Shown: in pieces, positions 9,681-35,384 of the stretch | Position numbering within the stretch: position 1 is the stretch's first letter | How the letters are laid out: every line of letters starts with the position of its first letter | Assembly (NCBI GenBank): GCA_902765395.1 | Contig: CACWZP010000021.1 | Coordinates: forward strand, 1-54,472 | Origin: an uncultured Eubacteriales bacterium | GTDB taxonomy: Bacteria > Bacillota > Clostridia > Christensenellales > Aristaeellaceae | Reading direction: 5' to 3' | Length of the DNA stretch: 54,472 nt | The notes under the pieces: model-generated | Database searches by the model: none | The model's input: the letters and a program-made list of their open reading frames with translations, nothing else | Told to the model about the DNA's origin: nothing | Program-made: the position numbers and the translations under genes

Positions 9681-9720
9681 AAAAGCGGAAGTCAGGTTGT
9701 ACCTGACTTCCGCTTTTTCA
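9681..9720. terminator. Bidirectional intrinsic terminator
   Basis: A 15-bp perfect stem (AAGCGGAAGTCAGGT and its complement) with a three-base loop has A/T runs on both flanks. It lies between two converging genes and overlaps the stop codon of the minus-strand exporter gene. Confidence 0.9.
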
Positions 9721-11320: not shown

Positions 11321-12047
11321 CGCCGTCCGCCTCCAAAAACGCCTCTTCCAGGGAATGGCCCTCGGTCAATTCCTCCATGGTGCCGGAGGCGATGATCCGG
11401 CCGTGCTTGATGATGGCCACCTTGTTGCACAGCTTCTCCGCCACGTCCAGCACGTGGGTGGAGAAGAATATGGCCGTGCCGTTCTGGCACATCTCGCGCA
11501 TGATCTCCTTCAGCGTGAAGGCGGCCTTGGGATCCAGGCCCACGAATGGCTCGTCCAGCACCAGCAGCCGGGGCTTGTGGATCAGCGCGGAGATGATGGC
11601 CAGCTTCTGCTTCATGCCGTGGGAATAGGCGCCGATGAGGTCGCCCAGGTCCCCGGTGATCTCAAACAGGTCGGCGTACCTGCGGATGCTCTGCTCCCGT
11701 TCCCGGGCGTCGATGCCGAACACGTCCGCCACGAAGTTCAGGTACTGTATGCCGGTCAGGTTCTCGTAAAGGTCGGGGTTGTCCGGGATATAGGCGGTCA
11801 CGCGCTTGCAGGCCATGGGCTCGTCCTTCACGGAATGGCCGTCGATGAAGATGTCGCCCTCGGTGAAGTCCAGCACGCCCACCACGGCGCGAATGGTGGT
11901 GGACTTGCCGGCGCCGTTGTGGCCGATGAAGCCGCAGATGTCACCGCCCATGACGGTGAGGTTCACGTCGTCCACGGCCCTCTTCTCCGATCCGTAGGAT
12001 TTGGAATAGTGCCTGATCTCAAGCATCGCGTTGTCGTTGGTACGCAA
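11313..12047 (-). CDS. ABC exporter ATPase
   Basis: This 244-residue ATPase drives the exporter encoded downstream. It has Walker A GHNGAGKST, a signature in the variant form SHGMKQKL, and Walker B with D-loop LLVLDEPFVGLDP, then the switch histidine in FFSTHVL. The start is taken as TTG 12047, because AAAGGAG lies nine bases before it; the first ATG, at 12026, would be about 30 bases from that site. The variant signature (YSHGMKQK) is common in the CcmA/NatA-type export branch. It shares a promoter region with the divergent diguanylate cyclase gene. Confidence 0.9.
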   Translation of the reverse strand: MRTNDNAMLEIRHYSKSYGSEKRAVDDVNLTVMGGDICGFIGHNGAGKSTTIRAVVGVLDFTEGDIFIDGHSVKDEPMACKRVTAYIPDNPDLYENLTGIQYLNFVADVFGIDAREREQSIRRYADLFEITGDLGDLIGAYSHGMKQKLAIISALIHKPRLLVLDEPFVGLDPKAAFTLKEIMREMCQNGTAIFFSTHVLDVAEKLCNKVAIIKHGRIIASGTMEELTEGHSLEEAFLEADGDE

Positions 12048-12305: not shown

Positions 12306-13376
12306 ATGTACACAAAGGAACAGCTTGTTAAATACGAATATTTTGATGAAGCGCTGGGCAGGCGGGAGGTTTCCAACGTGCTGGACCCGCTGACGGGGCT
12401 GATCTCCCGGCAGTACATACTGGGGTTCGCCCGCTGGCTGATCGAAAAGGGCATCCCCTTCACCTTTGGCATGCTGGATCTGGACAACTTCAAATTCGTC
12501 AACGACGCCTACGGCCACCACGCCGGCGACCGAGTACTGATCCGCGTGGCGGAGGGCCTCATCGGCTACCTGGACGGCTTCGGCCTCGCCGGTCGGTTCG
12601 GCGGCGACGAATACCTGTGGATCAACCTGCGCGACCGGGAATACGCGGACAAGAAGGCCTTCCTGGCGGATCTGTACGGCAGCGAGCGGGTGGTGCGCAG
12701 GAACGTGGCGTTGGAGGACTGCGCCCCGTTCATCACCGGCACCGTCGGCTGCGCCACCTTCCCCGACGACGCCGGGGACTGCGACAGCCTGTTCGCCATG
12801 ATCGACAAGGCGCTCTACCGCGGCAAGAGCAAGGGCCGCAACTGCTACATCATCTATGTGAAGGAAAAGCATGCCGACATCGACATCCAGCGCATCGCCC
12901 GCAAGGGTGTGTACACAACCATGTGCAACGTGGTGCGGATGTTTGAGATGGTGCCGGGGCTGGAGAACAAGCTGCACTCCGTGGCGCCGGTGCTGATGGA
13001 GGAACTGCGGCTGACGGATCTGTACTACATCGGCGGAGACCGGGTGTTGCGGGCCGTGCGCACCCAGGGCGTGGCGGAGCCGGCGTGTGACATCGACAAC
13101 CTGATGAGCGACGAGCTGTTCACCGCCAACAGCCTGGAGCAGGTGCAGGCGCGCTGTCCCGCCTTCTGCGATGTGCTGAAAAGGCGCGAGGTGGAATCTC
13201 TTATGGTGGTGCGCGTGGGCATGGACAACGCGGCGGCCGACGGCTATCTGGTGTGCGCCGAGCCCCACAGCCTGCGCATCTGGCAGGAGGATGAATGCGC
13301 CGTGATGTTCTTCCTGGCAAAGCTGATCGCCGCCCGGATCCGCATCGACGGTGAAACGCTGGGCGGCCGACCGTAA
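12306..13376 (+). CDS. Diguanylate cyclase with C-terminal GAF-like region
   Basis: This soluble 356-residue protein makes cyclic di-GMP from two GTP. The GGDEF domain (about residues 18-180) contains DPLTGL, the metal-binding LDLDNFKFVND and an intact RFGGDEY active site. No RxxD inhibitory site is evident before it. The C-terminal half is less familiar. Its end, near EPHSLRIWQEDECAVM, looks like the last strands and helix of a GAF or related sensor fold, an order opposite to the usual sensor-then-GGDEF. There is no signal peptide or membrane helix. It could be the counterpart of the EAL phosphodiesterase at 1837-3531. Confidence 0.88.
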   Translation: MYTKEQLVKYEYFDEALGRREVSNVLDPLTGLISRQYILGFARWLIEKGIPFTFGMLDLDNFKFVNDAYGHHAGDRVLIRVAEGLIGYLDGFGLAGRFGGDEYLWINLRDREYADKKAFLADLYGSERVVRRNVALEDCAPFITGTVGCATFPDDAGDCDSLFAMIDKALYRGKSKGRNCYIIYVKEKHADIDIQRIARKGVYTTMCNVVRMFEMVPGLENKLHSVAPVLMEELRLTDLYYIGGDRVLRAVRTQGVAEPACDIDNLMSDELFTANSLEQVQARCPAFCDVLKRREVESLMVVRVGMDNAAADGYLVCAEPHSLRIWQEDECAVMFFLAKLIAARIRIDGETLGGRP

Positions 13377-13591: not shown

Positions 13592-14185
13592 TTGAAGGGA
13601 CAGCGGACGATCCGGCAATACCGGGCGATGGACCTGGCGATGTTCGCCGTCATGCTGGCGGTGTTCGAGTCGCTGGTGGTCGTCGCCGCCCGCCGCTGGT
13701 TCCCCAACGAACCCTACACCGTGTCCGTGACCCCCGCCATCACCTGCATCGTGCTGATGCGCTGGGGCCCATGGGCGGGCCTCCACGCGGCGCTGGGCGG
13801 CGCGGTCTTCTGCCTGGTGTCCGGCGCCCGTCCGGCCCACTACGCCGTGTATACCATTGGCAACCTGCTGTCGCTGGGCACGCTTGGGCTGATTCGGGCA
13901 TGGACGCCCGAGGGCATTCACGAGAGCGTGGCGAAGTCCCTGCTGCTGGCGCTGTGCGTGACGCTTTCAATGCAGCTGGGCCGGGCCGTCGTCTCCGTGG
14001 CCACGGGGTCTCCCCTGGCATCGGCGCTGGGCTTTTTCACCACAGACGCGATCACGCTGCTGTTCACACTGGTGCTGATCTGGATCGTACGTCGGCTGGA
14101 CGGCATGTTTGAGGAACAAAACCACTACCTGCAAAGGCTTCACCGGCAGGAAGAAGAGGAAAGAGGAGGATTTTATGAGAGATAA
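13592..14185 (+). CDS. Six-helix membrane protein resembling an ECF S-component
   Basis: This 197-residue integral membrane protein has about six helices. The stretch around VTPAITCIVLMRWGP and the glycine-rich loop after it resemble substrate-binding S-components of ECF transporters, but no ECF A or T components are present. The start is TTG 13592, eight bases after GGAGG; an upstream in-frame TTG at 13553 has no such site. Its end overlaps the first permease gene by 11 bases, and the permease ribosome binding site lies inside it, so the two are coupled. As first gene of a CUT1 sugar transporter operon it is out of place. It may be an accessory or sensing subunit, or an independent vitamin-type uptake protein; the function is unknown. 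Confidence 0.75.
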   Translation: MKGQRTIRQYRAMDLAMFAVMLAVFESLVVVAARRWFPNEPYTVSVTPAITCIVLMRWGPWAGLHAALGGAVFCLVSGARPAHYAVYTIGNLLSLGTLGLIRAWTPEGIHESVAKSLLLALCVTLSMQLGRAVVSVATGSPLASALGFFTTDAITLLFTLVLIWIVRRLDGMFEEQNHYLQRLHRQEEEERGGFYER

Positions 14186-15233
14186 GGGAGCGGATTTTCT
14201 GATTTTCGATCAGGCCAGCGGCACTTATCGCGAAAGTCCCGAACAGATGGTGCGCGACGATGTGGAGAAGCACTACTGGCTGCACGTGGGCCGCACGATC
14301 CTCAAGGACTGGCGCCTCTACCTGATGCTGCTGCCCACCATCCTGGTCTTCCTGTTCTGGCGCTACCTGCCCATGTACGAGCTGCTGGGCGCGTTCAAGG
14401 TGGGCGACCAGGTGAAGAGCGTGTCGGAGCAGTACTTCGCGGGTTTTTCCTATTTTAAGACCCTGCTGGTCGGCGGCGGCACCGGCGGCCTGTCCATGGA
14501 GTTCTGGCGGGCGCTGCGCAACACGTTCCTGCTGAGCTTCTACGGCCTGTGCTTCGGCTTCCCGATGCCGATCATACTGGCGCTGTTCTTCAACGAGGTG
14601 CGCTCCAACATCGCCCGCAGCGTGTACCAGGTGCTCACCTACCTGCCCAAGTTCATGTCCACCGTCGTCATGACCTCGCTGGTGATGATGCTGGTGAAGC
14701 AGGGCTCGCTGACCAGCGGTGCGGGCATCGTGTCCCGCTTCCTGGCGCGCATCGGGCTGATCTCCGAGGAGATGGCCAACGCGGGCCTTCTGAACAACCC
14801 CAGCTTCTTCCGGGGCATCTACCAGATCAGCGGCATCTGGGAGACGGCGGGCTACGACAGCATCGTGTTCTTCGCGGCCATCATCGCCATCTCCCCCACC
14901 AGCTACGAGGCGGCGCAGATCGACGGCGCCGGCAAGATGGCGCAAATGCGCTACGTGGTGCTGCCCAGCATCCTTTCCACCATTGTCATCATGCTGATCA
15001 TGCGCATCGGCTCGCTGCTCAACATTGGATATGAAAAGGTGCTGCTGCTGTACAACAACAACACCTACGTGACCGCCGACGTGGTGTCCACCTTCGCCCA
15101 GCGCTACGGCCTGGCCGGCGCCCAGAAGGGCATCGCCTCCGCGGCGGAGATGATGAACAACGTGGTGGGCATGCTGCTGGTCATCGGCGCGAACACGGTC
15201 GCCCGCAAGGCGAGCAACGTGTCGCTGTATTAA
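14175..15233 (+). CDS. CUT1 sugar ABC transporter permease, LplB/YteP type
   Basis: This 352-residue inner-membrane subunit forms half of the pore for oligosaccharide uptake. It has an N-terminal cytoplasmic extension of about 50 residues, six helices, and the EAA loop YEAAQIDGAGKMAQMRYVVLP that contacts the ATPase. The ATG at 14175 follows AGAGGAGG; the open frame extends further upstream but has no ribosome site. LplB-type permeases in Bacillus accompany rhamnogalacturonan enzymes, and here GH28, GH105 and CE8 lie downstream. The next gene encodes its partner. Confidence 0.9.
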   Translation: MRDKGADFLIFDQASGTYRESPEQMVRDDVEKHYWLHVGRTILKDWRLYLMLLPTILVFLFWRYLPMYELLGAFKVGDQVKSVSEQYFAGFSYFKTLLVGGGTGGLSMEFWRALRNTFLLSFYGLCFGFPMPIILALFFNEVRSNIARSVYQVLTYLPKFMSTVVMTSLVMMLVKQGSLTSGAGIVSRFLARIGLISEEMANAGLLNNPSFFRGIYQISGIWETAGYDSIVFFAAIIAISPTSYEAAQIDGAGKMAQMRYVVLPSILSTIVIMLIMRIGSLLNIGYEKVLLLYNNNTYVTADVVSTFAQRYGLAGAQKGIASAAEMMNNVVGMLLVIGANTVARKASNVSLY

Positions 15234-15248
15234 AGGAGGGATTCAGTC

Positions 15249-16139
15249 GTGAAAAGAAAGCTTGAAGCCTCCGAGCTGATCTTCAAGATCATCAGCTATA
15301 CGCTTTTGACGGTGTTCGCCCTGGGCTGCCTGTACCCGTTCGTGTACGCGGTCTCGGCCTCCATCAGTGGCCGCCACGCCGTAGATTACGGCGAGGTGGT
15401 GCTGTTCCCCAAGGACGTGCAGTTCGACGCCTTCCGCAGGATGTTCAACGACAACATGTTCTGGAATTCCTATTCCAACACGCTGTTTCTTACGGTCTAC
15501 GGCACGGTGTGGGCGCTGGGCGTGGCCATCCTGGGCGCCTACGCGCTGAGCAAGAAGCGGCTGCTGTTCCGCAAGTTCTTCAACTTCTATCTGGTGTTCA
15601 CCATGTGGTTCTCCGCGGGCATTGTGCCCCAGTACCTGAACTACCTGGCCACCAAAAAGGTGTTCAACGGCATCGGCATCATGGACGACAAGTGGCTGGT
15701 GGTCATCGCCATGGGCATGGCGGCCATGAACATCATCCTGCTGCGCAACGCCTTTGAGAACGTGCCCAGCGAGATCGAGGAGGCCGCCATCGTGGACGGC
15801 GCTACGGAGTTCGGCGTGCTGAGCAAGGTGTTCATCCCGATGAGCAAGTCCACCATTGCCACCGTCGCCCTGTTCTTCGCCATCTCCCGCTGGAACGGCT
15901 ATTTCTGGGCGCGCCAGATGATCTCCAACGCCCACGAGCATCCCCTGCAGGTGTTCATACGATTGACGCTGGAGGATTACACGAACTCGGAGACCATGGC
16001 CGGCTGGAACGAGGTGTACGCCTCGGATTCGGTGATCTACGCGCTGATCGTGTGCTCCATCGTGCCGATCCTGATCATCTATCCCTTTATCCAGAAGTAC
16101 TTCGCCAAAGGCACCAATGCCGGCGGTGTGAAGGAATAA
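15249..16139 (+). CDS. CUT1 sugar ABC transporter permease, LplC/YtcP type
   Basis: This is the second pore subunit, 296 residues with six membrane helices and an EAA loop reading EEAAIVDGATEFGVLSKVFIP. It starts at GTG 15249 behind AAAGGAGG. Together with the preceding permease it makes the heterodimeric pore of a YtcP/YteP-like transporter for rhamnogalacturonan or oligogalacturonide fragments. The solute-binding protein gene follows after 20 bases. Confidence 0.9.
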   Translation: MKRKLEASELIFKIISYTLLTVFALGCLYPFVYAVSASISGRHAVDYGEVVLFPKDVQFDAFRRMFNDNMFWNSYSNTLFLTVYGTVWALGVAILGAYALSKKRLLFRKFFNFYLVFTMWFSAGIVPQYLNYLATKKVFNGIGIMDDKWLVVIAMGMAAMNIILLRNAFENVPSEIEEAAIVDGATEFGVLSKVFIPMSKSTIATVALFFAISRWNGYFWARQMISNAHEHPLQVFIRLTLEDYTNSETMAGWNEVYASDSVIYALIVCSIVPILIIYPFIQKYFAKGTNAGGVKE

Positions 16140-16159
16140 TATGAAGGAGGAACCCCCAC

Positions 16160-18217
16160 ATGAAGAAACTTCTGTCGATCCTGCTGGCCCTCGCGATGCT
16201 GCTTGGCTGCGCCGCGATGGCCGAAGGCACCGTGCTGCGCATGGCCACCGGCTACAACAGCACCAAGACCGGTATCGCCTTTGACGCCGAGACGGCGGGC
16301 AGCGGCGTGACCCTGGCCGACGGCAACACCTACAACACCGGCGACCTGAAGCCCACCTGGGTGGAAATGGAGAAGATCCTGGACGTCAAGTTCGAGGACA
16401 AGTACCAGGGCAACAGCGCCGCCAAGGAGTTCGAGTTCTGGAAGGACCGCCTGAACGAGGTGGACATGATCAGCGGCACCGCCGCCACGCTGTCCGAGTA
16501 CGGCGAGGCCGGCAGCCTGGTCAACCTGGCCGAGTACCTGGACCAGATGCCCAACTTCAAGGCCTATCTGGAAGCCAACCCCATCGTGCGCCTGTCCATC
16601 ACAGGCAACACCTCCACCGGCGCCATCTACTTCAGCCCCTATTTCGACGGTGTCAACGACATCGAGCGCATGCCCCTGATGCGCGTGGACTGGGTGCAGA
16701 AGCTGCTGGACGGCGAGGGTGAGTTCACCGCCGACGCCTGCAATAACCTGGCTCCCGTGGTCTACGAGCCCTACATGCCCACCAGCGGCTCCATCGAGAT
16801 CGAGACCGTGACCCTGGACGGCACCGGCACCGAGACCGTCACCAAGAACTACGACGCCTTTGGCAATGTCGTGGCGATCATGAATGACGCGGGCGAGCTC
16901 ACCGGCGTGGACGCCGTGAACCTGCTGCGCAACTACATTGACGCCGCCTACGACGGCTACTATGGCACCGAGCGGTCCAACCTGTTCGTCGGCCAGAACG
17001 CCGCCTGGGACGCCGACGAGATGGTTGCCCTGCTGCGCTGCGTCGTGGCCAACCCCCAGACCCTCAACGGCACCGATTCCGTGCAGGGCCTGTTCACCCG
17101 CGAGGAGAACAACAACCAGCGCCGCGTGGATATGATCCGCCTGGCCGGCCACCTGTTCGGCGTGCGCGGCATGGAGTCCCGCCAGGACTACCTGTATGTC
17201 GGCGCTGACAATGAGCTGCATGACGCCCGTCAGGACGTGGCCGCCTATGAGGCCATGGGCCGCATGCACGCCATGGTGGAAGAGGGGCTGATCTCCAAGG
17301 CGTTCCTGGATTCCTCCGAGGAGAACAGCGGCACCTACTTGGAGAACGACATGGGCTTCATGTCCTACGACTACAACCAGACCCAGACCATCATGAACGC
17401 CACCAAGCTGCAGGAAGGCGAGAAGTACATGGCCGTGATGGTTCCCGTGGCGCGCTGGTATGACGGCACCGACGAGAACGGCGTGTACATGCGCTTCACC
17501 GAGTCCTGGCGCTCTGTCAAGACCGACGGCTGGGCCATCTCCAAGGCCGGCGTGGAAGGCGACGAAGCCAAGCTGAACGCCGCCCTGGCGCTGATCGATT
17601 ACGCCTTCTCCGAGCAGGGCCAGATCCTGATGAGCTATGGCCCCGACGCCTTCATCAAGACCAAGGACGACGGCTCCTACGAGACCTTCGTGTTCAACGG
17701 CAAGGAGATGCCCGTCATCGCCGACGCCACCTATGAAGAGCTGTGGGAGAAGGCCAGCGGCAACTATACCAACTACGCCCGCATGTACCTGGGCTCCACC
17801 CTGTCCTTCGCCAAGAGCCAGGCCTTCGAGTATCAGTGCACTCACGAGGTCGGCAAGGAAGGCGCGGGCCACATCTCCGTGGCCATCGGCCTGGGCACCA
17901 TCAAGCATCCCGAGCTGGCCCTCGCTGAGAACCCCTGGTACACCTCCGTGCCCACCGTGCTGCCCAACACCAAGGTGGAGAACGACGAGCTGAACAGCTA
18001 CACCGAGCTGACCGCCAACGGCAAGTTCGGCCTGGGCAAGGACGGCGAGAACGCGTTCGTGAACCTGATCGTGAACGGCTTCACCCTGGACGGCATGACC
18101 TCTCCCGAAGCGGCCGCCCAGACCGTGGACACCGACTGGTACGGCTATGACTACCTGCTGCTGAAGGGCGACGCCTGGGCTCGCCTGCTGGATTACTACA
18201 CCAGCCTCGCCGAATAA
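16160..18217 (+). CDS. Large extracellular sugar-binding protein of the CUT1 transporter
   Basis: This 685-residue protein captures the sugar outside the cell and delivers it to the permeases. It begins MKKLLSILLALAMLLGCAAM, a signal peptide with a lipobox-like LLGC, so lipid anchoring at Cys17 is likely; cleavage after AMA is the alternative. It is longer than the usual 420-550 residues, in keeping with LipO/YtcQ-type proteins that bind longer oligosaccharides. The sequence is rich in Tyr, Trp and acidic residues. It is followed by a strong RNA hairpin, which may raise its yield over that of the downstream genes. Confidence 0.88.
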   Translation: MKKLLSILLALAMLLGCAAMAEGTVLRMATGYNSTKTGIAFDAETAGSGVTLADGNTYNTGDLKPTWVEMEKILDVKFEDKYQGNSAAKEFEFWKDRLNEVDMISGTAATLSEYGEAGSLVNLAEYLDQMPNFKAYLEANPIVRLSITGNTSTGAIYFSPYFDGVNDIERMPLMRVDWVQKLLDGEGEFTADACNNLAPVVYEPYMPTSGSIEIETVTLDGTGTETVTKNYDAFGNVVAIMNDAGELTGVDAVNLLRNYIDAAYDGYYGTERSNLFVGQNAAWDADEMVALLRCVVANPQTLNGTDSVQGLFTREENNNQRRVDMIRLAGHLFGVRGMESRQDYLYVGADNELHDARQDVAAYEAMGRMHAMVEEGLISKAFLDSSEENSGTYLENDMGFMSYDYNQTQTIMNATKLQEGEKYMAVMVPVARWYDGTDENGVYMRFTESWRSVKTDGWAISKAGVEGDEAKLNAALALIDYAFSEQGQILMSYGPDAFIKTKDDGSYETFVFNGKEMPVIADATYEELWEKASGNYTNYARMYLGSTLSFAKSQAFEYQCTHEVGKEGAGHISVAIGLGTIKHPELALAENPWYTSVPTVLPNTKVENDELNSYTELTANGKFGLGKDGENAFVNLIVNGFTLDGMTSPEAAAQTVDTDWYGYDYLLLKGDAWARLLDYYTSLAE

Positions 18218-18237
18218 TCGGCCAATCGACCTAATCT

Positions 18238-18270
18238 GCCTCCCCTCCCGCCCTCCGGCGGGAGGGAGGC
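18238..18270 (+). promoter_or_regulatory. GC-rich intercistronic hairpin after the binding-protein gene
   Basis: A stem of about 14 bp (GCCTCCCCTCCCGCC against GGCGGGAGGGAGGC, one bulge) with loop CTCC starts 20 bases past the stop. No T-run follows. Such hairpins are known to protect upstream mRNA ends in operons, and may partly terminate. Confidence 0.6.
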
Positions 18271-18303
18271 ACCCTTACACTCTTGGATCGGGGGAAGTTC
18301 GAC

Positions 18304-18894
18304 ATGTATAAGAAACAGATGAAGCTGCAGCGCATCGCGTGCTTTCTGTCCATCGCGGCCGGCGCGCTGGTATTTTTGTACGTGCTGGGCATGATGACGG
18401 ACCTGTACGACATGCTGTACACCATGGTCCCGGTGCCCGACGATCCATCCTCGGTCAAGGTGGCCGGCGCCATGATCTACTATGACATGCAGGGCTTCAA
18501 TCGCGCGTTCCTGCGCGTGGCCATCGGGCTGCTGCTGGCGGCCTGCCTGCTGTTCATCACCAACACCCATTCACGCCGGAAATACTACATCGGCAACTAC
18601 GCGGCCATCGGCATCGACGCCGTCGCCAACGTTGCCGCGGCCATCTGGGCCCACGGTCAGATCGCGGCCTTCAAGACCCAGTACCTGACCACCGTGGATT
18701 TCGAGCAGCTGGCGCGCCGCCTGGCGAGGGCAGGCACCTACACCGAATCCACCTTCTGGTTCGACGCCCACCTGGGCGTGTTCGCCTTCGCGCTGATCGC
18801 GGTGATCCTGCTGGTCGCCTGCGCGGTGTGGAAGCAATCGCTGATGAAGAACGAAAGAAAGCTGATTGAAGCTGGAAAGGCGGCGAACGCATGA
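18304..18894 (+). CDS. Four-helix membrane protein, transporter-operon accessory
   Basis: I do not recognise this family. The 196-residue protein has a short basic N-terminus (MYKKQMKLQR), four predicted helices (about 12-32, 69-89, 97-115 and 156-178), a polar loop of about 40 residues between the third and fourth, and a charged C-terminal tail. ATG 18304 is preceded by GGGGGA at eight bases; an upstream TTG at 18283 is less likely. It overlaps the next gene by four bases (ATGA), so the two products are probably made in equal amounts and may form a complex. Its place between the binding protein and the ATPase suggests a role in the sugar transporter. It is not a normal CUT1 subunit. Confidence 0.7.
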   Translation: MYKKQMKLQRIACFLSIAAGALVFLYVLGMMTDLYDMLYTMVPVPDDPSSVKVAGAMIYYDMQGFNRAFLRVAIGLLLAACLLFITNTHSRRKYYIGNYAAIGIDAVANVAAAIWAHGQIAAFKTQYLTTVDFEQLARRLARAGTYTESTFWFDAHLGVFAFALIAVILLVACAVWKQSLMKNERKLIEAGKAANA

Positions 18895-19376
18895 TGAATG
18901 AACAATCCGTCCGGCTCGACCGCATGCGCTTTACAAAGAACACCACGTCCTCCCGCCTGGCGATCCTGGCCATCGTGTTCGACGTGTTCTACTTTGTCAG
19001 CCTCTACAAGATCAATGTGGATTATTACTACTCCCTCATCATGGGCGCCTCGATCCTGTACAACCTGGTGTTCATGCTGGCGGCCTTCCTGTCCTCGGAG
19101 GGAGTGAAAAATTATAAGCAGGGCTTCTCCTGGGTGCTCTGCGTGCTGGGTATCATCCAGATCGCCCGGATATTCATACTGCCCGTGCCCGCCCACGCCA
19201 CCACCGTCTCGGTCGGCGGCACGGAGCTGCTGGCCATGGGCGACGGCCAGTTCGTCCGAGTCGTCATCTATCTCATCGCCTCGGCCGTCTGCCTGTTCGC
19301 GGCGGCGGCGGTGAACCTGGTCAAGAGCCGCGCCCTGAAGGCGCATATCGCGGGCCTCGAAGGCCAAGGGGCATAA
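18891..19376 (+). CDS. Four-helix membrane protein, partner of the preceding gene
   Basis: I do not recognise this family. The product has 161 residues with helices at about 22-40, 46-68, 82-98 and 125-145, a basic N-terminus and a short outside loop containing TTVSVGGTELLAMGDG. It starts at ATG 18891 inside the end of the previous gene. The ATPase gene follows after 12 bases. The tight packing within the transporter operon is the only clue to function; a regulatory or assembly role for the permease complex is a guess. Confidence 0.68.
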   Translation: MMNEQSVRLDRMRFTKNTTSSRLAILAIVFDVFYFVSLYKINVDYYYSLIMGASILYNLVFMLAAFLSSEGVKNYKQGFSWVLCVLGIIQIARIFILPVPAHATTVSVGGTELLAMGDGQFVRVVIYLIASAVCLFAAAAVNLVKSRALKAHIAGLEGQGA

Positions 19377-19388
19377 GGAGGGCGCACG

Positions 19389-20468
<1,080 letters not shown>

Positions 20469-20471
20469 GTC

Positions 20472-21035
20472 ATGGCAAGCCAGCCCAAGGGCATCAAAGA
20501 ATTCATCCGCAAGCGCATCGTGGCGCTGAAGCGCAAGCCCCAGACCATCGCCCTGTTGGCGTTTGGGCTCGCCTTCGTCTACTATTCCCTGAACCTGACG
20601 AAGATTTCTGACACCACGGCCTACATCAACCTGCCGGGCATGGGCCTGGCGGGTTTCGCCACCATGCTGTTCTCCATCCTGCTGATGGTGTGCTTCATGA
20701 ACGCGTTCCCCCACCGCAAGAAGGTGAACATCCCCATGCTGGCGCTGATGTTCGTGCTGGTGGGCATCATCATCTACGCGGGCATCTTCTACCAGGGCCG
20801 CATCACCGAGGCGCTGACCCGCGAGGTGAACCCCATCACGGTGGGTTCCGACAAGACCTACATCACCGCCGCCATGAAGATGCTGAACGTGCACCGTATC
20901 ATGCTGATCGTGGGCGTGGCGCTGGTGGCGCTGCTGCCGGTGTACTCCAAGCTGCTGAAGAAGATCAACACCAACGTGGAGGTCGAGGACAACGGCGGCA
21001 TGGCGGCCATCGACATCAGCGGCGAGGACGCGTAG
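20472..21035 (+). CDS. Four-helix membrane protein with acidic C-terminal tail
   Basis: I do not recognise this family. The product has 187 residues. A strongly basic N-terminus (IRKRIVALKRK) precedes helices at about 26-43, 54-74, 84-106 and 142-162, and the last 20 residues are acidic (NVEVEDNGG and ISGEDA). It starts three bases after the ATPase stop, suggesting coupled translation, and is followed 14 bases later by another membrane protein. It may dock on the ATPase or the permeases. No catalytic motif is visible. Confidence 0.68.
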   Translation: MASQPKGIKEFIRKRIVALKRKPQTIALLAFGLAFVYYSLNLTKISDTTAYINLPGMGLAGFATMLFSILLMVCFMNAFPHRKKVNIPMLALMFVLVGIIIYAGIFYQGRITEALTREVNPITVGSDKTYITAAMKMLNVHRIMLIVGVALVALLPVYSKLLKKINTNVEVEDNGGMAAIDISGEDA

Positions 21036-21049
21036 CGTCTGCGTAAGAC

Positions 21050-21688
21050 ATGGCTCGCAACAAGAAAACGGCGCCTCCCGAGGCCCATAAGTCCGCGGCG
21101 GATTACTACAGGCTGAACCTGAAGGCCGTGGACGACCTGGTGACCGCCGATGAATCCAACTCCCCCAGGGTGAGCGAGGCGGAGCTGCGCAAGTACCGCT
21201 CCGGCCCGAAGCTGAAGCTGTCGGACACGGTGAAAGCGCTGCTGATCAAGGCCTGGTTCGCCGGGGCAACCTGCTTCTTCTTCCTGTGGGGGCTGGGCAC
21301 AATGCTCACCCACTGGCTGGATCAGCTGGTGGTGCTGGGGCTGGCCCTGGGGGCCGTGACGGACCTGCTGACCAACAACCTCTATCGGTTCTACGCCAAG
21401 ATCCCCGGCGCGAACGACCGCTGGATGATGTTCCCCCAGAAGGCGTTTTACACGCTGCCGCTGAACATCGTGTACGCCTACGTGCTGCTGTTCCTGGTGG
21501 TGACTACCTACAACGTGGTCAACGCGGCGATCCTCGGCATGGGCCTTGCCCAGGGCGGCACGCCGCTGGGCGTGGGGCCGATCCTGTTCGGCGTGTTCAC
21601 CGCGGCGTGGGACACGCTGCTCATCCAAATCAAGCGAACGGCGCAAAACGTCCTGGCGGACGCCAGGCGCAGCGCGAAGGGAGATTGA
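21050..21688 (+). CDS. Membrane protein with soluble N-terminal domain, partner of the preceding gene
   Basis: I do not recognise this family. The 212-residue product begins with about 60 polar residues rich in Lys, Glu and Ser, then has four hydrophobic segments (about 65-83, 87-105, 128-152 and 167-190) and a basic C-terminal tail. The ribosome site is weak. The reading frame ends inside the leader of the GH28 gene. With the three other small membrane proteins it brackets the ATPase gene symmetrically (two before, two after). Function unknown. Confidence 0.68.
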   Translation: MARNKKTAPPEAHKSAADYYRLNLKAVDDLVTADESNSPRVSEAELRKYRSGPKLKLSDTVKALLIKAWFAGATCFFFLWGLGTMLTHWLDQLVVLGLALGAVTDLLTNNLYRFYAKIPGANDRWMMFPQKAFYTLPLNIVYAYVLLFLVVTTYNVVNAAILGMGLAQGGTPLGVGPILFGVFTAAWDTLLIQIKRTAQNVLADARRSAKGD

Positions 21689-21695: not shown

Positions 21696-23246
21696 GTGTT
21701 TCACAGCATTTATGTCGGGTCCACCTCCGCGTGCTTCGAGCTGGACAACCGCGCGCCGTTCCTCTCCCCCACTCCCTACAGCGTATCTCTGGACGGCGTG
21801 GAAAAGCTGAACGGCACGGAGAACGTGTTCTCGCTGTTCGACCTCGCGCCCGACCGGGATTACGCGGTGGCGCTGCGCATGGGCGGCGAGGAAGCGCGCC
21901 TCGCCATTCACACTCGGCCCGAAACCTGCGCCATCAGCGTCCGCGCGTTCGGCGTCGTGGGCGACGGCGTGACCGACGACACCGCGGCCATCCAGCGGGC
22001 CGTCAACCTGCTGCCCGAGGGCGGGCGGCTGGTGGTCCCCGAGGGCGCCTATCTCACCGGGCCGATCCTGCTCAAGAGCCACATGACGCTGGAGCTGCAG
22101 GCCGGCGCGACGCTGCTGGGCCGCACGGACAAGGCGGCCTACCCGGCGCTTCCCGCCACGGCAGAGGATATCGACGGCGGCAAGCCCGTGCACTTCGGCG
22201 CGTTCGAGGGCCTGGCGCGGGATATGTACGCCTCGCTGATCACCGCCGAGTACGCCCGGGACATCGCGATCGTCGGCCAGGGCAGGCTGGACGGCAACGC
22301 CCAGAATGCCGACTGGTGGCAGACCTTCAAGGATGACCCGGTGGCCCGCCCCCGCGTGCTGTTCATGAACCGGTGTGAGGACGTGACGGTCCACGGCGTT
22401 ACCGCCTGCAACTCCCCCTCCTGGCACCTGCATCCCTACTACTGCAAGGGCGTGGCGCTTTACGACGTGTCGGTCTCCGCTCCAAAGAACAGCCCGAACA
22501 CCGACGCGCTGGACCCGGAGTGCTGCGACGGCGTGGAAATCGTAGGATGCCGCTTCTCCGTGGGCGACGACTGCATCGCTATCAAGTCGGGCAAGCTGCC
22601 CCTCTATCGCATGTGCCCCGCCGCGGCCACGCGCCACACCATCCGCAACTGCCTGATGTCCTTCGGGCACGGGGCGGTCACCCTGGGCAGCGAGATCTCC
22701 GGCGGCATCCGGGATCTGTCCGTCAGCCAGTGCCTGTTCCGGCAGACGGACCGGGGGCTGCGCATCAAGACCCGCCGGGGCCGCGGCCAGAGCTGCTATA
22801 TCGACGGGATCGCCTTCGACAACATCCGCATGGAGGGCGTCGTGACCCCCATCGTGATGAACATGTGGTATCGCTGCGTGGACCCGGACGGCGATTCCGA
22901 GTACGTGCAGGGCCGCGCGCCCCTGCCGGTGGACGAGCGCACGCCCCGGCTGGGCCGGTTCCGCTTTTCCAACATGGACTGCGTGGATGCTCAAGCCGCG
23001 GCCTGTTACTGCGACGGCCTGCCGGAGATGCCCATCGACGAGGTGACGTTTGAGAACGTGCGCGTGGCCTTTGCCGACGACGCCAAACCCGCTGTGCCCA
23101 GCATGTTCACCGGCGCGCCGGAGCGCTGCCGAATGGGGCTGTACTTTGAGAACGTGCGCCGGGTGGTGCTGAAAAACGTGCACATCGACGGTCAGGCGGG
23201 CGAGCCCGTCGTCACCCTTGGCGTGGACGAGATCGTCGCTGAGTAG
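21696..23246 (+). CDS. GH28 polygalacturonase/rhamnogalacturonan hydrolase, cytoplasmic
   Basis: This 516-residue enzyme hydrolyses alpha-linked galacturonic acid chains. A small N-terminal beta domain (1-75, fibronectin-like) precedes the right-handed beta-helix. The GH28 catalytic motifs are all present: NTD at 268-270, GDD at 290-292, GHG at 324-326 and RIK at 356-358. No signal peptide is seen, so it acts on imported oligosaccharides. The start is GTG 21696 behind AAGGGAG; the open frame extends into the preceding gene but without a better start. An exo-acting enzyme is likely from the cytoplasmic setting, but that is inference. Confidence 0.93.
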   Translation: MFHSIYVGSTSACFELDNRAPFLSPTPYSVSLDGVEKLNGTENVFSLFDLAPDRDYAVALRMGGEEARLAIHTRPETCAISVRAFGVVGDGVTDDTAAIQRAVNLLPEGGRLVVPEGAYLTGPILLKSHMTLELQAGATLLGRTDKAAYPALPATAEDIDGGKPVHFGAFEGLARDMYASLITAEYARDIAIVGQGRLDGNAQNADWWQTFKDDPVARPRVLFMNRCEDVTVHGVTACNSPSWHLHPYYCKGVALYDVSVSAPKNSPNTDALDPECCDGVEIVGCRFSVGDDCIAIKSGKLPLYRMCPAAATRHTIRNCLMSFGHGAVTLGSEISGGIRDLSVSQCLFRQTDRGLRIKTRRGRGQSCYIDGIAFDNIRMEGVVTPIVMNMWYRCVDPDGDSEYVQGRAPLPVDERTPRLGRFRFSNMDCVDAQAAACYCDGLPEMPIDEVTFENVRVAFADDAKPAVPSMFTGAPERCRMGLYFENVRRVVLKNVHIDGQAGEPVVTLGVDEIVAE

Positions 23247-23261
23247 ACGGAGGAAATGACC

Positions 23262-24392
23262 ATGTATGAAGCCATTGACCGCTATGTGTTCAGCCTGATC
23301 GAGCGTTCCTCGCCCGAGCGCACCGCCTGGAACATCGAAAAGGTGCGCCAGGGCGTGCCCACCAACTGGAATTACATCGACGGCTGCATGATCTCGGCCC
23401 TGCTTGCCATGGCCGACATACTGGGCGACGAGCGCTACTTCGACTTCTCCCGCCGGTTCATCGACGCCTTTGTGGGCGAGGACGGCACAGTGCGCACCTT
23501 CAACCCGTCCAAGCACACGCTGGACGACATCAACGAGGGCCGCGTGCTGTTCGCGCTGTACGACCGCACGGGCGACGGGAAGTACCGCCGCGCGGCGGGC
23601 ACGCTGAAGCGGGCGCTGGACGATCAGCCGCGCACCTTCGAGGGCAGCTTCTGGCACAAGCAGATCTATCCCAACCAGGTGTGGCTGGACGGCATCTACA
23701 TGGCCATGCCCTTCCTGGCGCTGTATGAGGGCCACTTCGGAAGCGGCGACTATAGCGACATCCTCCGACAAGTCGAGACCGTGCGTGACCGCATGCGTGA
23801 CGGCGCCACTGGCCTCTACTATCACGGCTACGACGCCAGCCGCAGCGCCTTCTGGGCCGACCCGGTCACGGGCCTCTCCAGGAGCTTCTGGCTGCGCAGC
23901 ATCGGCTGGTTCGCCGTTGCGCTGGCGGACCTGATCGAGTTCGTCCCCGCGGACGCGGGCCGGGAGACGCTCACCGCCATCTTTGCCGACCTGATGGACA
24001 GCGCCTGGCGCTTCCACGACCCGGACACCGCCATGTACTGGCAGGTGCCCGATCGCCCCGGCGAAGCGGGCAACTACCTGGAATCCAGCGGCAGCGCCAT
24101 GCTGGCCTATGCCATGCTGAAGGGCGCGCGCCTGGGCGCGCTGGACGCGGTCTTTGCCGAGCGCGGGCAGCAGACCTTCGACGGCATCGTCAGGCATCAG
24201 CTCACCTTTGACGACGACGGCGAACTGAACCTGGGCGGCATCTGCCTGGTGGCGGGACTGGGGCCGGAGGACAACCGGCGCCGGGACGGCACCTATGAAT
24301 ACTATATCTCCGAGCCCGTCGTCAAGAACGACGCCAAGGGCGTGGCTCCCTTCGTGCTCTGCTACACGGAGGTCAAGCGGCGCCAGGGCTGA
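23262..24392 (+). CDS. GH105 unsaturated rhamnogalacturonyl hydrolase, cytoplasmic
   Basis: This 376-residue (alpha/alpha)6-barrel enzyme removes the 4,5-unsaturated galacturonyl residue left at the non-reducing end by lyases. The motif KQIYPNQVWLDGIYMAMPF places the catalytic Asp at residue 143, the same number as in Bacillus YteR; WNYIDGCMI and FWLRSIGWF also match. The start at 23262 is chosen because GGAGG lies eight bases upstream; the ATG at 23256 is only two bases from it. Its substrate implies a pectate or rhamnogalacturonan lyase elsewhere in the genome, as none is in the window. Confidence 0.93.
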   Translation: MYEAIDRYVFSLIERSSPERTAWNIEKVRQGVPTNWNYIDGCMISALLAMADILGDERYFDFSRRFIDAFVGEDGTVRTFNPSKHTLDDINEGRVLFALYDRTGDGKYRRAAGTLKRALDDQPRTFEGSFWHKQIYPNQVWLDGIYMAMPFLALYEGHFGSGDYSDILRQVETVRDRMRDGATGLYYHGYDASRSAFWADPVTGLSRSFWLRSIGWFAVALADLIEFVPADAGRETLTAIFADLMDSAWRFHDPDTAMYWQVPDRPGEAGNYLESSGSAMLAYAMLKGARLGALDAVFAERGQQTFDGIVRHQLTFDDDGELNLGGICLVAGLGPEDNRRRDGTYEYYISEPVVKNDAKGVAPFVLCYTEVKRRQG

Positions 24393-24431: not shown

Positions 24432-25505
24432 ATGGCGTATTTGACGCTGAAGAACATCAACAAGATTTACCCGAACGGCTATCACGCGGTGCACAACTTC
24501 AATCTCGAAATTGAAAAGGGTGAATTTGTTGTATTCGTGGGGCCCTCTGGCTGCGGCAAGTCCACCACGCTGCGGATGATCGCGGGCCTGGAGGACATCT
24601 CCGGCGGCGAGTTCCTGATCAACGGCAAGCGCGCCAACGAGATGGGGCCCCGGGAGCGCGAGGTGGCCATGGTGTTCCAGAGCTACGCCCTCTACCCCCA
24701 GATGACGGTCTATGACAACATCGCCTTCGGCCTGACGCTGCAGGGCGTGGACGAGGACGTGATCGAAAAGCGGGTGGAGAACACGGCGCGCATCCTGGGC
24801 CTGACGGATTACCTGGATCGCCTGCCCCGGGCGCTGTCCGGCGGCCAGCGCCAGCGCGTGGCCATTGGCCGCGCCATCATCCGCAAGGTGGGCATCTTCC
24901 TGATGGACGAGCCGCTTTCCAACCTGGACGCCAAGCAGCGCGTGACCATGCGCTATGAGATCGCCCAGATCCACCGGGAGACCGGCGCGACCACCATCTA
25001 CGTCACCCACGACCAGACCGAGGCCATGACGCTGGCGGATCGCATCGTGGTGATGAAGGACGGCTATGTCCAGCAGATCGGCACGCCCTACGAGCTTTAC
25101 TACAAGCCGGCCAATGTGTTCGTCGCGGGCTTCATCGGCGAACCGCCCATGAACTTCGTGCGCGGCACTGTGAAGGACGGCTGCATCGCCATGGGCGACA
25201 ACCGGCTGGATCTGAGCAGGAAATACGCGGGCATCGGCCAGTACGAGGGCAGAGAGATCGTGCTGGGGTTCCGGCCCGAGGCCATCTCCCTGGGCGAGAC
25301 GGATGGCTACAGCGTCAACTGCCGGGTGGAGCTGACGGAGATGCTGGGCGACAACACCAATGTATACGTATCCGCCGGCGAGACCCAGGCCATCCTGAAG
25401 GTGGACTCCCACGACACCCCCGAGACCGACGTGGACATCACCTTCTCCATACCGCTGGAGGGCGTGTATCTGTTCGACGCGGAGACGGAGAACGTGATCG
25501 AGTGA
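24432..25505 (+). CDS. Second MsmX/UgpC-type sugar transporter ATPase
   Basis: This 357-residue ATPase has Walker A GPSGCGKST, signature LSGGQRQRVAIGRA, Walker B IFLMDEPLSNLDAK, switch His in YVTHDQTEA and a TOBE tail. ATG 24432 follows AAGGAGG. It is clearly related to the ATPase at 19389 but differs along its whole length, so it is not a recent duplicate. No permease lies next to it. It may serve other CUT1 transporters in the cell while the first ATPase is dedicated to this one, or the reverse. Confidence 0.92.
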   Translation: MAYLTLKNINKIYPNGYHAVHNFNLEIEKGEFVVFVGPSGCGKSTTLRMIAGLEDISGGEFLINGKRANEMGPREREVAMVFQSYALYPQMTVYDNIAFGLTLQGVDEDVIEKRVENTARILGLTDYLDRLPRALSGGQRQRVAIGRAIIRKVGIFLMDEPLSNLDAKQRVTMRYEIAQIHRETGATTIYVTHDQTEAMTLADRIVVMKDGYVQQIGTPYELYYKPANVFVAGFIGEPPMNFVRGTVKDGCIAMGDNRLDLSRKYAGIGQYEGREIVLGFRPEAISLGETDGYSVNCRVELTEMLGDNTNVYVSAGETQAILKVDSHDTPETDVDITFSIPLEGVYLFDAETENVIE

Positions 25506-25571: not shown

Positions 25572-26402
25572 ATGATGAACATCGGCATTCGCCTGCACGA
25601 CACCGCGGCCGGCTCGCTGGAGGAGCGGCTGGACTTCGCCAAAGCCCAGGGCTTTTCCTGCGCCCACCTGGCGCTTTCAAAGGTACTGCCCGGGTTTTCG
25701 ATGAACGACGCGCCCCATCTGATGGACGACGCGCTGGCCGGGTGCGTCCGGCGCGCCTTTGAGGAGCGCGGCATGGGCTGCGCGGTGCTGGGCTGCTATC
25801 TGAAGCTGGCCACCGACGACGCCCAAGCGCTGGAGCGCACCCGGGACATCTACCGCGCGCACCTGCGCTTCGCCGGAAAGATCGGCGCGGGCGTGGTGGG
25901 CACCGAGACGCCCCTCTCCCCCGGCCTTGCCATGGCGCCGGACTCCGGAGAGGCGTTCAAGCTGTTCCTGAAATGCGTTGAGCCGCTGGTGCGCTGCGCC
26001 GAAGAGGAGGGCGCGCTGCTGGCCATCGAGCCGGTGGTGGATCACATCGTGAATACCCCGGAGAAGGCCGAGCGCATGCTGGAGGCGCTGAACAGCGACC
26101 ACGTGCGCATCATACTGGACGCCGTGAACCTGCTGACCAATGAGAACTGCGCCCGGGCCGACGCCATCATCGACGAGGCCATCCGCCGCCTGGGCGACAG
26201 GATCAGCGTGCTGCACCTGAAGGACTACACCGTCGATCCGGGCGCCTTCCGGGTGAAGGCCTGCGCCTGCGGTACGGGCGTGATGCGATACGACCGTCTG
26301 CTGGCCTTTGGCCGCGAGCGCGGCCTGCCCATGACCCTTGAAAACACCCGGCCCGACAACGCCGAGGCGGCGCGACTGTTCCTGGAGGGGTTGGCCAAAT
26401 GA
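25572..26402 (+). CDS. TIM-barrel sugar (phosphate) isomerase/epimerase family protein
   Basis: This 276-residue protein belongs to the AP-endonuclease-2/xylose-isomerase-like barrel family, which isomerises or epimerises sugars and keto-acids. Typical strand-end motifs are seen: MNIGIRLHD at the start, LLAIEPVV with a metal-binding Glu, RIILDAVN with Asp, VLHLKDY with His/Asp, and LENTRP near the end. It starts at ATG 25572 behind GGAGG. The stop overlaps the CE8 start (ATGA), so the two genes are coupled. A role in converting galacturonate, rhamnose or their keto-products is likely, but the substrate is not readable. Confidence 0.8.
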   Translation: MMNIGIRLHDTAAGSLEERLDFAKAQGFSCAHLALSKVLPGFSMNDAPHLMDDALAGCVRRAFEERGMGCAVLGCYLKLATDDAQALERTRDIYRAHLRFAGKIGAGVVGTETPLSPGLAMAPDSGEAFKLFLKCVEPLVRCAEEEGALLAIEPVVDHIVNTPEKAERMLEALNSDHVRIILDAVNLLTNENCARADAIIDEAIRRLGDRISVLHLKDYTVDPGAFRVKACACGTGVMRYDRLLAFGRERGLPMTLENTRPDNAEAARLFLEGLAK

Positions 26403-27343
26403 GACATGTGATTTCGCCCGATGCGGGCCTTCAGGCCGCCGTGGATGCCGCGCGGGACGGCGACACGCTGGTGATGCTCCCCGGGGAGTACCGGGAGCGG
26501 GTGGTGATCCACAAGAGGGGCCTCACCATCAAAGCGGAGGACGGCGCGGTGCTGATCGGCTCCGGCTGCGCCAAGGACACATATCCCGACGGCCGGGAAA
26601 AGGGCACGTTCCTGTCCGCCACGCTGCTGGCGCTGGGCGACGACGTGACCATGGAGGGACTGACCGTGCGCAACGACGCCGGAGATGGCCGGGACGTGGG
26701 CCAGGCCGTGGCGGTCTATGCCGCGGGCGACCGGGGCGTGTGGAGGAACTGCCGGTTCATCGCCCACCAGGACACGCTGTTCTGCGGGCCGGTGATGCAA
26801 AAGGTGCTGGACGAGATCGCGCCGCGCTCGCTGGAAGGCGTGGAGTGCGTGCCCTCCGTCGGTGACTGCCCACCTACCCGGGGCAGGCAGTACTTTGAGA
26901 ATTGCTTTATACAGGGCGACGTGGACTTCATCTTCGGCCCCTATCGCTGCTGGTTTGAGGGCTGCACGCTGCACATGAACGAGCGGGGCGGCTGGTACAC
27001 CGCCGCCAACACCCCCGAAGCGCAGCCTTGGGGGCTGGTGTTCAACCGCTGCCGGCTGACCGGCGACTGCGCAGAAGGCGCGGGCAAGCTGGGGCGGCCC
27101 TGGCGCGCCTTCGCCCGGACGTTGTTCCTGGGCTGCGACATGAACGAACACGTCAGCCCCGCCGGATTTGAGGACTGGCAGAACTGGGACGGCGTGCGCG
27201 AAATCACGGGGCGCTGCGGCGAATGGGGCACAACGGGCGTTCGTGCCGACCTGTCCACGCGGCACCCAAAGGCAGCCAGGCTATCGGACGAGGAGGCCGC
27301 GGCCGTCACGCGGGAGACTGTGCTGAACGGATGGAAGCCATAA
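26399..27343 (+). CDS. CE8 pectinesterase, cytoplasmic
   Basis: This 314-residue beta-helix enzyme removes methyl esters from galacturonate residues. Key CE8 motifs are present: GQAVA (Gln102), HQDTLF (Gln124, Asp125), GDVDFIFG (nucleophile Asp176), YTAANT and LGRPWR (Arg233, Trp235). There is no signal peptide, while most known pectinesterases are secreted; this one must act on imported methylated oligogalacturonides. It is coupled to the barrel isomerase gene by a four-base overlap and followed by a good terminator. Confidence 0.92.
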   Translation: MRHVISPDAGLQAAVDAARDGDTLVMLPGEYRERVVIHKRGLTIKAEDGAVLIGSGCAKDTYPDGREKGTFLSATLLALGDDVTMEGLTVRNDAGDGRDVGQAVAVYAAGDRGVWRNCRFIAHQDTLFCGPVMQKVLDEIAPRSLEGVECVPSVGDCPPTRGRQYFENCFIQGDVDFIFGPYRCWFEGCTLHMNERGGWYTAANTPEAQPWGLVFNRCRLTGDCAEGAGKLGRPWRAFARTLFLGCDMNEHVSPAGFEDWQNWDGVREITGRCGEWGTTGVRADLSTRHPKAARLSDEEAAAVTRETVLNGWKP

Positions 27344-28869: not shown

Positions 28870-28897
28870 ATATACCTCCTCGTAGTCAGTAAGCACG

Positions 28898-29680: not shown

Positions 29681-29685
29681 ACGCA

Positions 29686-32015: not shown

Positions 32016-32031
32016 CGCAGACACTGAATAC

Positions 32032-35373: not shown

Positions 35374-35384
35374 CGATTCCTCCG

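What the first reader, a model, noticed from the sequence alone, without database searches (positions are those of the whole stretch)
13592..21688. Five extra membrane proteins built into a CUT1 pectin transporter operon
A CUT1 transporter needs a binding protein, two permeases and an ATPase. Here the operon also encodes an S-component-like six-helix protein fused by overlap to the first permease gene, and four unrecognised four-helix proteins placed two before and two after the ATPase gene. Overlaps or gaps of 3-14 bases tie them to the ATPase. Several have basic N-termini and charged tails that could dock on the ATPase or permeases. This could be an enlarged, regulated importer or a transporter coupled to a sensing module. 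The arrangement and topology are seen; the role is inference.
Basis: partly seen in the sequence, partly recalled or inferred. Interest (0 to 1): 0.72.

Follow-up and report, generated by a model that had tools for sequence, protein, structure and literature searches.

The report
Nine-gene pectin importer in gut bacteria
A sugar-uptake machine, probably for pectin fragments, in rumen and gut bacteria is encoded together with five extra membrane proteins in nearly every copy examined, one of them folded like the vitamin-catching part of a quite different transporter, which suggests a more elaborate importer than the usual four-part design.

The parts
13592..14185 (+). SLP: 197-aa membrane protein with predicted ECF S-component fold and a conserved cytosolic tail (consensus RRLDGxFEDQKHYLLR)
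   Evidence: alignment; fold; no conserved AXXXA
14175..15233 (+). LplB: AlgM1-like CUT1 permease with a conserved N-terminal extension of about 40 residues
   Evidence: BPD_transp_1; AlgM1 4tqu, E 2.3e-66, aligned from residue 40; conserved extension
15249..16139 (+). YtcP: AlgM2-like CUT1 permease
   Evidence: (AlgM2 4tqu, E 1.2e-77)
16160..18217 (+). SBP: 685-aa extracellular substrate-binding protein, distant relative of AlgQ1/AlgQ2
   Evidence: family profile to AlgQ1 E 5.2e-21; single sequence finds no relative and no Pfam family
18237..18271 (+). Hairpin in the SBP-M1 spacer, probably an internal attenuator or mRNA-end stabiliser
   Evidence: -39.1 kcal/mol for the 86-base spacer 18218-18303, z -2.25; spacer folds better than shuffles in 70 of 72 loci; stem of 10 or more pairs in 69 of 72
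18304..18894 (+). M1: accessory membrane protein, conserved RRxYYxxNY loop and charged C-terminal tail
   Evidence: no family
18891..19376 (+). M2: accessory four-helix membrane protein, conserved SEGVKxY loop
   Evidence: no family
19389..20468 (+). Dedicated MalK-type ATPase (MsmX/AlgS-like) with intact nucleotide-binding motifs
20472..21035 (+). M3: accessory membrane protein, basic N-terminus (LKRKPQ) and acidic tail
   Evidence: no consistent family
21050..21688 (+). M4: accessory membrane protein, cytosolic N-terminal region then four helices
   Evidence: no family and no matching fold found
21696..23246 (+). GH28 polygalacturonase-like enzyme without a signal peptide by hydropathy (GTG start inferred)
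   Evidence: (PF00295, E 1.2e-35)
23256..24392 (+). GH88/GH105-type unsaturated uronyl hydrolase without a signal peptide by hydropathy
   Evidence: (PF07470, named GH88 in Pfam, E 2.7e-79; the GH105 label is recalled)
24432..25505 (+). Second MalK-type ATPase gene without permease genes beside it; perhaps a shared MsmX-like ATPase (inference)
   Evidence: a similar gene recurs in other loci of the set
26399..27343 (+). Pectinesterase-like enzyme without a signal peptide by hydropathy
   Evidence: (PF01095, E 4.9e-32)

Best explanation
The operon encodes one uptake machine for long, partly esterified pectin fragments. Outside the cell, a large AlgQ-like binding protein captures a galacturonate oligomer and hands it to an AlgM1/AlgM2-type permease pair (LplB-YtcP) driven by a dedicated MalK-type ATPase. 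The five extra proteins (SLP with an S-component fold, and M1-M4) are membrane subunits around this core: they probably hold, gate or widen the translocation path or dock the ATPase, through their conserved cytosolic loops and tails. The fragment enters the cytosol and is de-esterified and cut there by the pectinesterase, GH28 and GH88/GH105-type enzymes. Shown: gene order, co-occurrence, core relationships, predicted fold of SLP, lack of signal peptides on the enzymes by a simple hydropathy rule. Inferred: pectin as substrate, import as long fragments, physical assembly, and the part each extra protein plays.
For: Order and strand agree in 89 of 89 loci in which all nine genes were recognised. 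Of the best 80 of 157 loci found with SLP, 58 of 58 with at least 9.3 kb after the SLP start have all nine (in 3 of them LplB is in two ORFs). Among 367 genomes of the order, SLP is in 23 and M2 in the same 23 plus one variant. M3 was in 25 of 396 of another draw of the order: 23 full modules, one contig-cut (G748) and one chance match (G522). M1-M2, M2-ATPase and ATPase-M3 have median gaps of -4, 12 and 3 bases, under 30 bases in 94-98% of loci. The window's genome has 17 other LplB-like permease genes but single matches for SLP, M2, M3 and M4 (M1 was not searched there), so its other CUT1-type importers do without. Core close to the alginate importer: AlgM1 E 2e-66, AlgM2 E 1e-77, AlgS E 2e-96, AlgQ1 E 5e-21 by profile. 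Module LplBs form one group apart from the 17 paralogues (quick tree). Homologues of the GH88/GH105-type enzyme lie in 68, of GH28 in 61 and of the pectinesterase in 51 of 79 distinct loci, at least one of the three in 73. With any upstream start allowed, a signal-like stretch is seen in 0 of 56, 1 of 60 and 5 of 51 of these, against 71 of 79 binding proteins. A variant keeps the four M positions although its proteins have diverged far and SLP is absent.
Against: No physical contact was tested; co-conservation shows shared function, not a complex. No joint structure prediction was possible. The M3-M4 spacing is looser (median 32 bases, under 30 in 44% of loci) and SLP-LplB is under 30 in 79%. 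The hydropathy rule is crude: at the inferred starts it found a signal in only 18 of 65 binding proteins, because starts were placed too far in; the fairer comparison allows any upstream start. The G493 variant lacks SLP, so SLP is not essential to an M1-M4 core. Its gene at the M3 place is not recognisably homologous to M3 (probability 5.6%). Eleven of 79 loci show no GH88/GH105-type homologue in the stretch held and 18 no GH28, though some are cut by contig ends.
Confidence: 0.58

Rival explanations
1. The five proteins form a sensing or control unit, not part of the translocation path. SLP would bind a pectin-derived ligand in its S-component pocket, as the same fold does in 5TMR histidine kinases, and through M1-M4 switch the ATPase on or off or report on flux.
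For: The S-component fold is shared with sensor kinases of the 5TMR group (PMC11109136; abstract, passages and section 10 read). SLP lacks a conserved AXXXA motif, like the receptors and MreD. It has conserved polar residues inside the helices (E26 in 83 of 87 rows; N91 and R131 in 90% or more). It has a conserved cytosolic tail.
Against: No kinase, cyclase or other output domain is in the module; a homologue of the GGDEF gene upstream was found in only 13 of 79 distinct loci. Five separate proteins are more than a sensor would seem to need. The G493 variant keeps M1-M4-like genes without SLP.
Confidence: 0.2
2. The five proteins act in the same pathway but as a separate membrane complex: assembly or insertion factors for the importer, or a carrier for a by-product of pectin breakdown such as methanol, acetate or a cation.
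For: Co-occurrence needs only a shared pathway. None of M1-M4 resembles an ABC subunit, and the M4 model found no solved counterpart. The M3-M4 gap is often longer than 30 bases.
Against: M1-M2 and M3 lie within 30 bases of the next gene around the ATPase in 94-98% of loci, a placement usual for subunits made in fixed ratio; an exporter for methanol or acetate would not be expected to be tied to the ATPase gene. A variant beside a different enzyme (DUF4962 in G493) keeps the same four positions.
Confidence: 0.17
3. The genes are passengers kept together by chance or recent descent.
For: Many loci come from related gut clostridia, so the copies are not independent.
Against: Order is kept while the small proteins fall to 22-35% identity with the window's across several families. 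The module sits in three MAGs labelled Chloroflexota, nested among Bacillota, so it seems to move as a block. A variant at very low similarity keeps the layout.
Confidence: 0.02

Closest known systems
AlgQ1/AlgQ2-AlgM1M2SS alginate importer of Sphingomonas sp. A1 (PDB 4tqu, 4tqv, 4xig, 4xtc)
   Same: AlgM1 and AlgM2 are the nearest solved relatives of the permeases, AlgQ1/AlgQ2 of the binding protein by profile, and AlgS is among the nearest of the ATPase, after MsmX. Polymer import followed by cytosolic lyases is described for it (PMC7055323, passages read) and fits the cytosolic-looking pectin enzymes here.
   Different: The chains of 4tqu that matched are AlgQ2, AlgM1, AlgM2 and AlgS; nothing in it matched SLP or M1-M4. 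The binding protein here is about 670-880 residues against about 500. The substrate context is pectin.
S-components of ECF transporters (ThiT, PanT, RibU, BioY, FolT)
   Different: No conserved AXXXA motif (best register 19 of 87 rows), no EcfT-like or ECF ATPase gene in the module, no detectable sequence relation, and it comes with a binding protein and CUT1 permeases.
MsmX/MalK-dependent CUT1 importers of Firmicutes (LplB-YtcP type; recalled from general knowledge)
   Same: Permease and ATPase families; the host genome has 17 further LplB-like permease genes.
   Different: As recalled, those have no integral accessory subunits; this genome has single matches for SLP, M2, M3 and M4.
TogMNAB oligogalacturonide importer of Dickeya dadantii (from PMC7055323, passages read)
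   Same: ABC import of pectin fragments.
   Different: Four components named there; not compared by sequence here.

Membership tests
CUT1 / AlgM1M2SS-type ABC importer | Two BPD_transp_1 permeases | tested here: met
CUT1 / AlgM1M2SS-type ABC importer | MalK-type ATPase with OB/TOBE region | tested here: met
   (ABC_tran 3.3e-31, OB_MalK 3.6e-13; TOBE_2 below its cut-off)
CUT1 / AlgM1M2SS-type ABC importer | Extracellular binding protein of the AlgQ kind | tested here: met
   by family profile only; the single sequence finds nothing
CUT1 / AlgM1M2SS-type ABC importer | Transport of polymeric or long acidic oligosaccharide | not testable with these tools
   inferred from cytosolic-looking pectin enzymes
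ECF transporter S-component | Six-helix S-component fold | tested here: met
ECF transporter S-component | AXXXA motif in helix 1 for docking on EcfT (PMC11109136 section 10) | tested here: not met
   best register A19..A23 in 19 of 87 rows; any register in 26 of 87
ECF transporter S-component | EcfT and EcfA partners in the module | tested here: not met
   no CbiQ/EcfT match listed for M1-M4; the only ATPase is MalK-type. The rest of the genome was not searched for an ECF module
5TMR-type sensor kinase membrane domain | Cytosolic output domain after the six-helix fold | tested here: not met
   SLP ends after one cytosolic helix (176-195)
MreD | PF04093 match | tested here: not met
Any known family, for M1-M4 | Consistent profile match | tested here: not met
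   only scattered sub-threshold matches
Any known fold, for M4 | Structural match to a solved chain | tested here: inconclusive

The most novel reading that the evidence does not exclude
A hybrid importer: a binding-protein-dependent CUT1 transporter and an S-component-fold subunit, from two importer types held to be distinct, work in one complex with four previously undescribed small membrane subunits, making a machine of nine different proteins that pulls polymeric pectin through a Gram-positive-type membrane in one step.
Probability: 0.4. Interest if true: 0.86.

Novelty: new variant of a known kind. Interest (0 to 1): 0.7.

Why it matters
CUT1 importers are taught as four kinds of part. 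Here is a sub-type, found in rumen and gut clostridia and in three MAGs labelled Chloroflexota, that in every uncut copy examined here comes with four or five more. If they are subunits, they show how an ABC importer may be rebuilt for large, charged, esterified cargo, and they join the S-component fold to a transporter class in which my eight literature searches did not find it described. It also points out five unannotated families tied to pectin use by gut microbes, each directly testable.

Tried and rejected
Chance or artefact: rejected.

M1-M4 as copies of one another: four of the six pairs were compared by profile and gave no clear relation; best was M2 against M3, probability 22%, 72 columns, in register. 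M1 against M4 and M2 against M4 were not compared. M1-M4 as CysZ/EI24, SpoIIIAC or others: sub-threshold and inconsistent (7 of 76 M3 members for EI24, 8 of 78 M1 members for SpoIIIAC). SLP as EMC4 of the ER membrane complex: E 0.0098 and 0.011 over 57 positions, taken as chance.

M4 away from the module: the one foreign phylum-wide hit (G201) proved to be the low-complexity start and first helix of an unrelated permease. M3 away from the module: one weak hit (G522) with no module around it. M2 away from the module: one (G493), which turned out to be a divergent module.

Fusions among the nine genes, as evidence of contact: none in the loci (looked for; the loci were not included). One locus (L076) has an M3 preceded in the same frame by a weakly M3-like half (i-E 0.012).

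ATPase positions that set module copies apart from 17 other MalK-type copies were listed; a run of them lies at 89-106, just after the Q-loop (recalled), but two separate clades differ at many sites anyway, so this is not counted as evidence.

Literature: eight searches returned no listing that describes this arrangement; only listings and starts of abstracts were seen for most papers, and most subscription papers are not held, so absence in print is not claimed.

Rows dropped before counts: of 80 loci, 22 were left out of the 58 (21 with under 9.3 kb after the SLP start, two of which still hold all nine, and L131 with a partial SLP). Profiles left out rows with a stop in the stretch taken or odd length (for example M1 of L028, taken with a stop ahead of its ATG). 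The deep alignments were picked by hand from the rows available, near-copies left out (SLP 87 rows, SBP 34, M1 78, M2 75, M3 76, M4 75). One GH28 and 12 GH88/GH105-type hits at contig edges were left out. Spacers under 50 or over 250 bases were left out.
Full report
What is there. The window (G000:C21, a 3.38-Mb genome in 53 contigs, about 96% complete) holds nine + strand genes in a row: SLP 13592-14185, LplB 14175-15233, YtcP 15249-16139, SBP 16160-18217, M1 18304-18894, M2 18891-19376, ATPase 19389-20468, M3 20472-21035, M4 21050-21688, then GH28 at 21696 and a GH88/GH105-type gene at 23256 (the Pfam model is named GH88, the GH105 label is recalled). SLP overlaps LplB by 11 bases, M1 overlaps M2 by 4, and the gaps M2-ATPase, ATPase-M3 and M3-M4 are 12, 3 and 14 bases. 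The window's five extra proteins match no Pfam or NCBIfam family above its cut-off.

Is it more than chance? The same nine genes were looked for around relatives. In the first set, 12 of 15 loci have all nine and the other 3 are cut by contig ends. In the second, 20 of 22 have all nine and 2 are cut. A scan of named genomes with SLP gave 157 relatives, of which the best 80 were kept. Of these 80, 58 have at least 9.3 kb after the SLP start. All 58 have all nine, 55 with every gene whole and 3 with LplB in two ORFs; of the 22 others, 2 still have all nine and the rest are cut. Altogether 89 loci have all nine genes recognised, and in 89 of 89 order and strand agree. Ten pairs were the same contig fetched twice, leaving 79 distinct by sequence; L028 and L092 are a further pair, so 78 by contig. 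The named loci are mostly rumen and gut Clostridia MAGs, with three labelled Chloroflexi, Flexilinea or Anaerolineaceae (L100, L102, L126) and one Solobacterium (L149). Median gaps are -4 for M1-M2, 12 for M2-ATPase and 3 for ATPase-M3, under 30 bases in 94-98% of loci; M3-M4 is looser (median 32, under 30 in 44%) and SLP-LplB is under 30 in 79%.

Co-occurrence by genome. In one draw of 367 genomes of the order, M2 matches in 24 and SLP in 23; the 23 are shared. The extra M2 genome, G493, carries a divergent variant: LplB, YtcP, SBP, an M1-like, an M2-like, an ATPase, a small membrane protein at the M3 place and an M4-like gene, in the same order, with no SLP found upstream but an IclR-looking regulator on the other strand (label by eye, no family search), and a DUF4962 enzyme downstream. 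Its M1, M2 and M4 are recognised by the family profiles (43, 35 and 59 bits); the gene at the M3 place is not. Its M4 used as a query in 19 genomes around it found four more genomes, and all four hold the ordinary nine-gene module. M3 had been found in 25 of 396 genomes of the order: 23 lie in full modules, one on a contig that ends (G748), and one (G522) is a chance match without a module. The module is patchy even among close kin (M3 in 16 of 60 relatives). In wider draws it is rare: M2 in 4 of 391 genomes of the class (the window's own, two full modules and one cut by a contig end) and M4 in 2 of 398 of the phylum, one being the window's own and the other a false hit. M1 to M4 look like the constant part; SLP marks the main, pectin-linked type. 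That rests on one variant.

The core. The nearest solved relatives of the two permeases are AlgM1 (E 2.3e-66) and AlgM2 (E 1.2e-77). The ATPase is nearest to MsmX (E 1.2e-104) and also close to AlgS (E 1.6e-96). The SBP, about 670-880 residues in the family, has no convincing Pfam match in 34 members and none in the PDB as a single sequence, but its family profile finds AlgQ1 and AlgQ2 (E 5e-21 and 9e-20). So the core is of the kind of the Sphingomonas alginate importer, for which polymer import and cytosolic lyases are described (PMC7055323, passages read). LplB carries about 40 conserved residues ahead of the AlgM1-like part, a possible docking site (inference). The window's genome has 17 other LplB-like permease genes but single matches for SLP, M2, M3 and M4. 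In the quick tree the 80 module LplBs are one group apart from those 17 (support 100), with the three Chloroflexota copies inside Bacillota; the careful tree was not finished, long branches among paralogues are noted there, and MAG binning errors cannot be excluded.

Substrate. tblastn with the window's enzymes finds homologues of the GH88/GH105-type enzyme in 68, of GH28 in 61 and of the pectinesterase in 51 of 79 distinct loci, at least one of the three in 73, in stretches of 9 to 20.6 kb, some cut by contig ends. None of 60 GH28, 56 GH88/GH105-type or 51 pectinesterase homologues has a signal-like stretch at the inferred start; with any upstream start allowed the counts are 1, 0 and 5, against 71 of 79 for the SBPs (at the inferred start the SBP control was only 18 of 65, so the second comparison is the one to trust). 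An intracellular pectin methylesterase was called unusual in Paenibacillus (PMC6339884, passages read). Together this suggests that esterified oligogalacturonides are brought in and processed inside. The G493 variant sits beside another enzyme type (DUF4962, with a sub-threshold alginate-lyase match), so the M1-M4 core may serve other acidic polysaccharides too.

Expression. Between SBP and M1 there is a strong hairpin: the spacer folds at -39.1 kcal/mol in the window, z -2.25. In 70 of 72 loci this spacer folds better than shuffles (z below -2) against 15 of 61 for the YtcP-SBP spacer (single-base shuffles); 69 of 72 have a stem of 10 pairs or more but only 3 have five or more T in the next nine bases. 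Hairpins after binding-protein genes that set the ratio of binding protein to translocator are known in cellulolytic Clostridia (PMC9045158, abstract and passages read). Here the hairpin would place M1-M2-ATPase-M3-M4 in one expression block, apart from the SBP.

Mechanism. I favour an enlarged AlgQ/AlgM1M2-type importer in which SLP and M1-M4 are subunits. Shown: order, co-occurrence, relations, predicted fold. Inferred: substrate and its size, complex formation, individual roles. The chief rival is a sensing unit. It is helped by the receptor kinship of the S-component fold and weakened by the absence of an output domain and by the variant that keeps M1-M4-like genes but not SLP. A separate assembly or by-product system cannot be ruled out. 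Contact between proteins was not tested at all.

Novelty. The core is a known kind. The set of five extra membrane proteins, one with an S-component fold, is not described in anything my eight literature searches listed. I therefore class it as a new variant of a known kind, with potential for more if the complex is shown.

Noticed in passing
L198:1746-10806 (G493): Divergent eight-gene version of the module without SLP, beside a DUF4962 enzyme with no evident signal peptide (by eye) and an IclR-looking regulator (by eye); suggests a wider family of M1-M4 importers for other acidic polysaccharides.
   Followed up: partly
18218-18303: Strong hairpin in the SBP-M1 spacer, found at the same place in nearly all loci examined, mostly without a U-tract.
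   Followed up: yes
24432-25505: Second MalK-type ATPase gene with no permeases beside it; a similar one follows M4 in other loci.
   Followed up: no
L076:9536-10570: M3 frame is nearly double length; its first half looks weakly like a second M3 domain, hinting that M3 may sit beside another M3.
   Followed up: partly
L100, L102, L126: The module in MAGs labelled Flexilinea, Chloroflexi and Anaerolineaceae, nested among clostridial copies in the LplB tree: likely transfer between phyla, if the bins are right.
   Followed up: partly
12306-13376: GGDEF-domain protein just upstream of the operon; a homologue lies near the module in 13 of 79 distinct loci.
   Followed up: no
27472-43867 (- strand): Genes for a GH4 enzyme, an RraA-like protein, two short-chain dehydrogenases, an enolase-superfamily enzyme, a lactonase, an APH-fold phosphotransferase, an aldehyde/alcohol dehydrogenase and a MatE transporter: probably uronate breakdown and fermentation.
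   Followed up: no
30978-32015: LacI-type regulator on the + strand, a candidate regulator of the pectin island.
   Followed up: no
9692-12047 (- strand): ABC_tran_2 membrane protein and an ABC ATPase beside the island, on the other strand.
   Followed up: no
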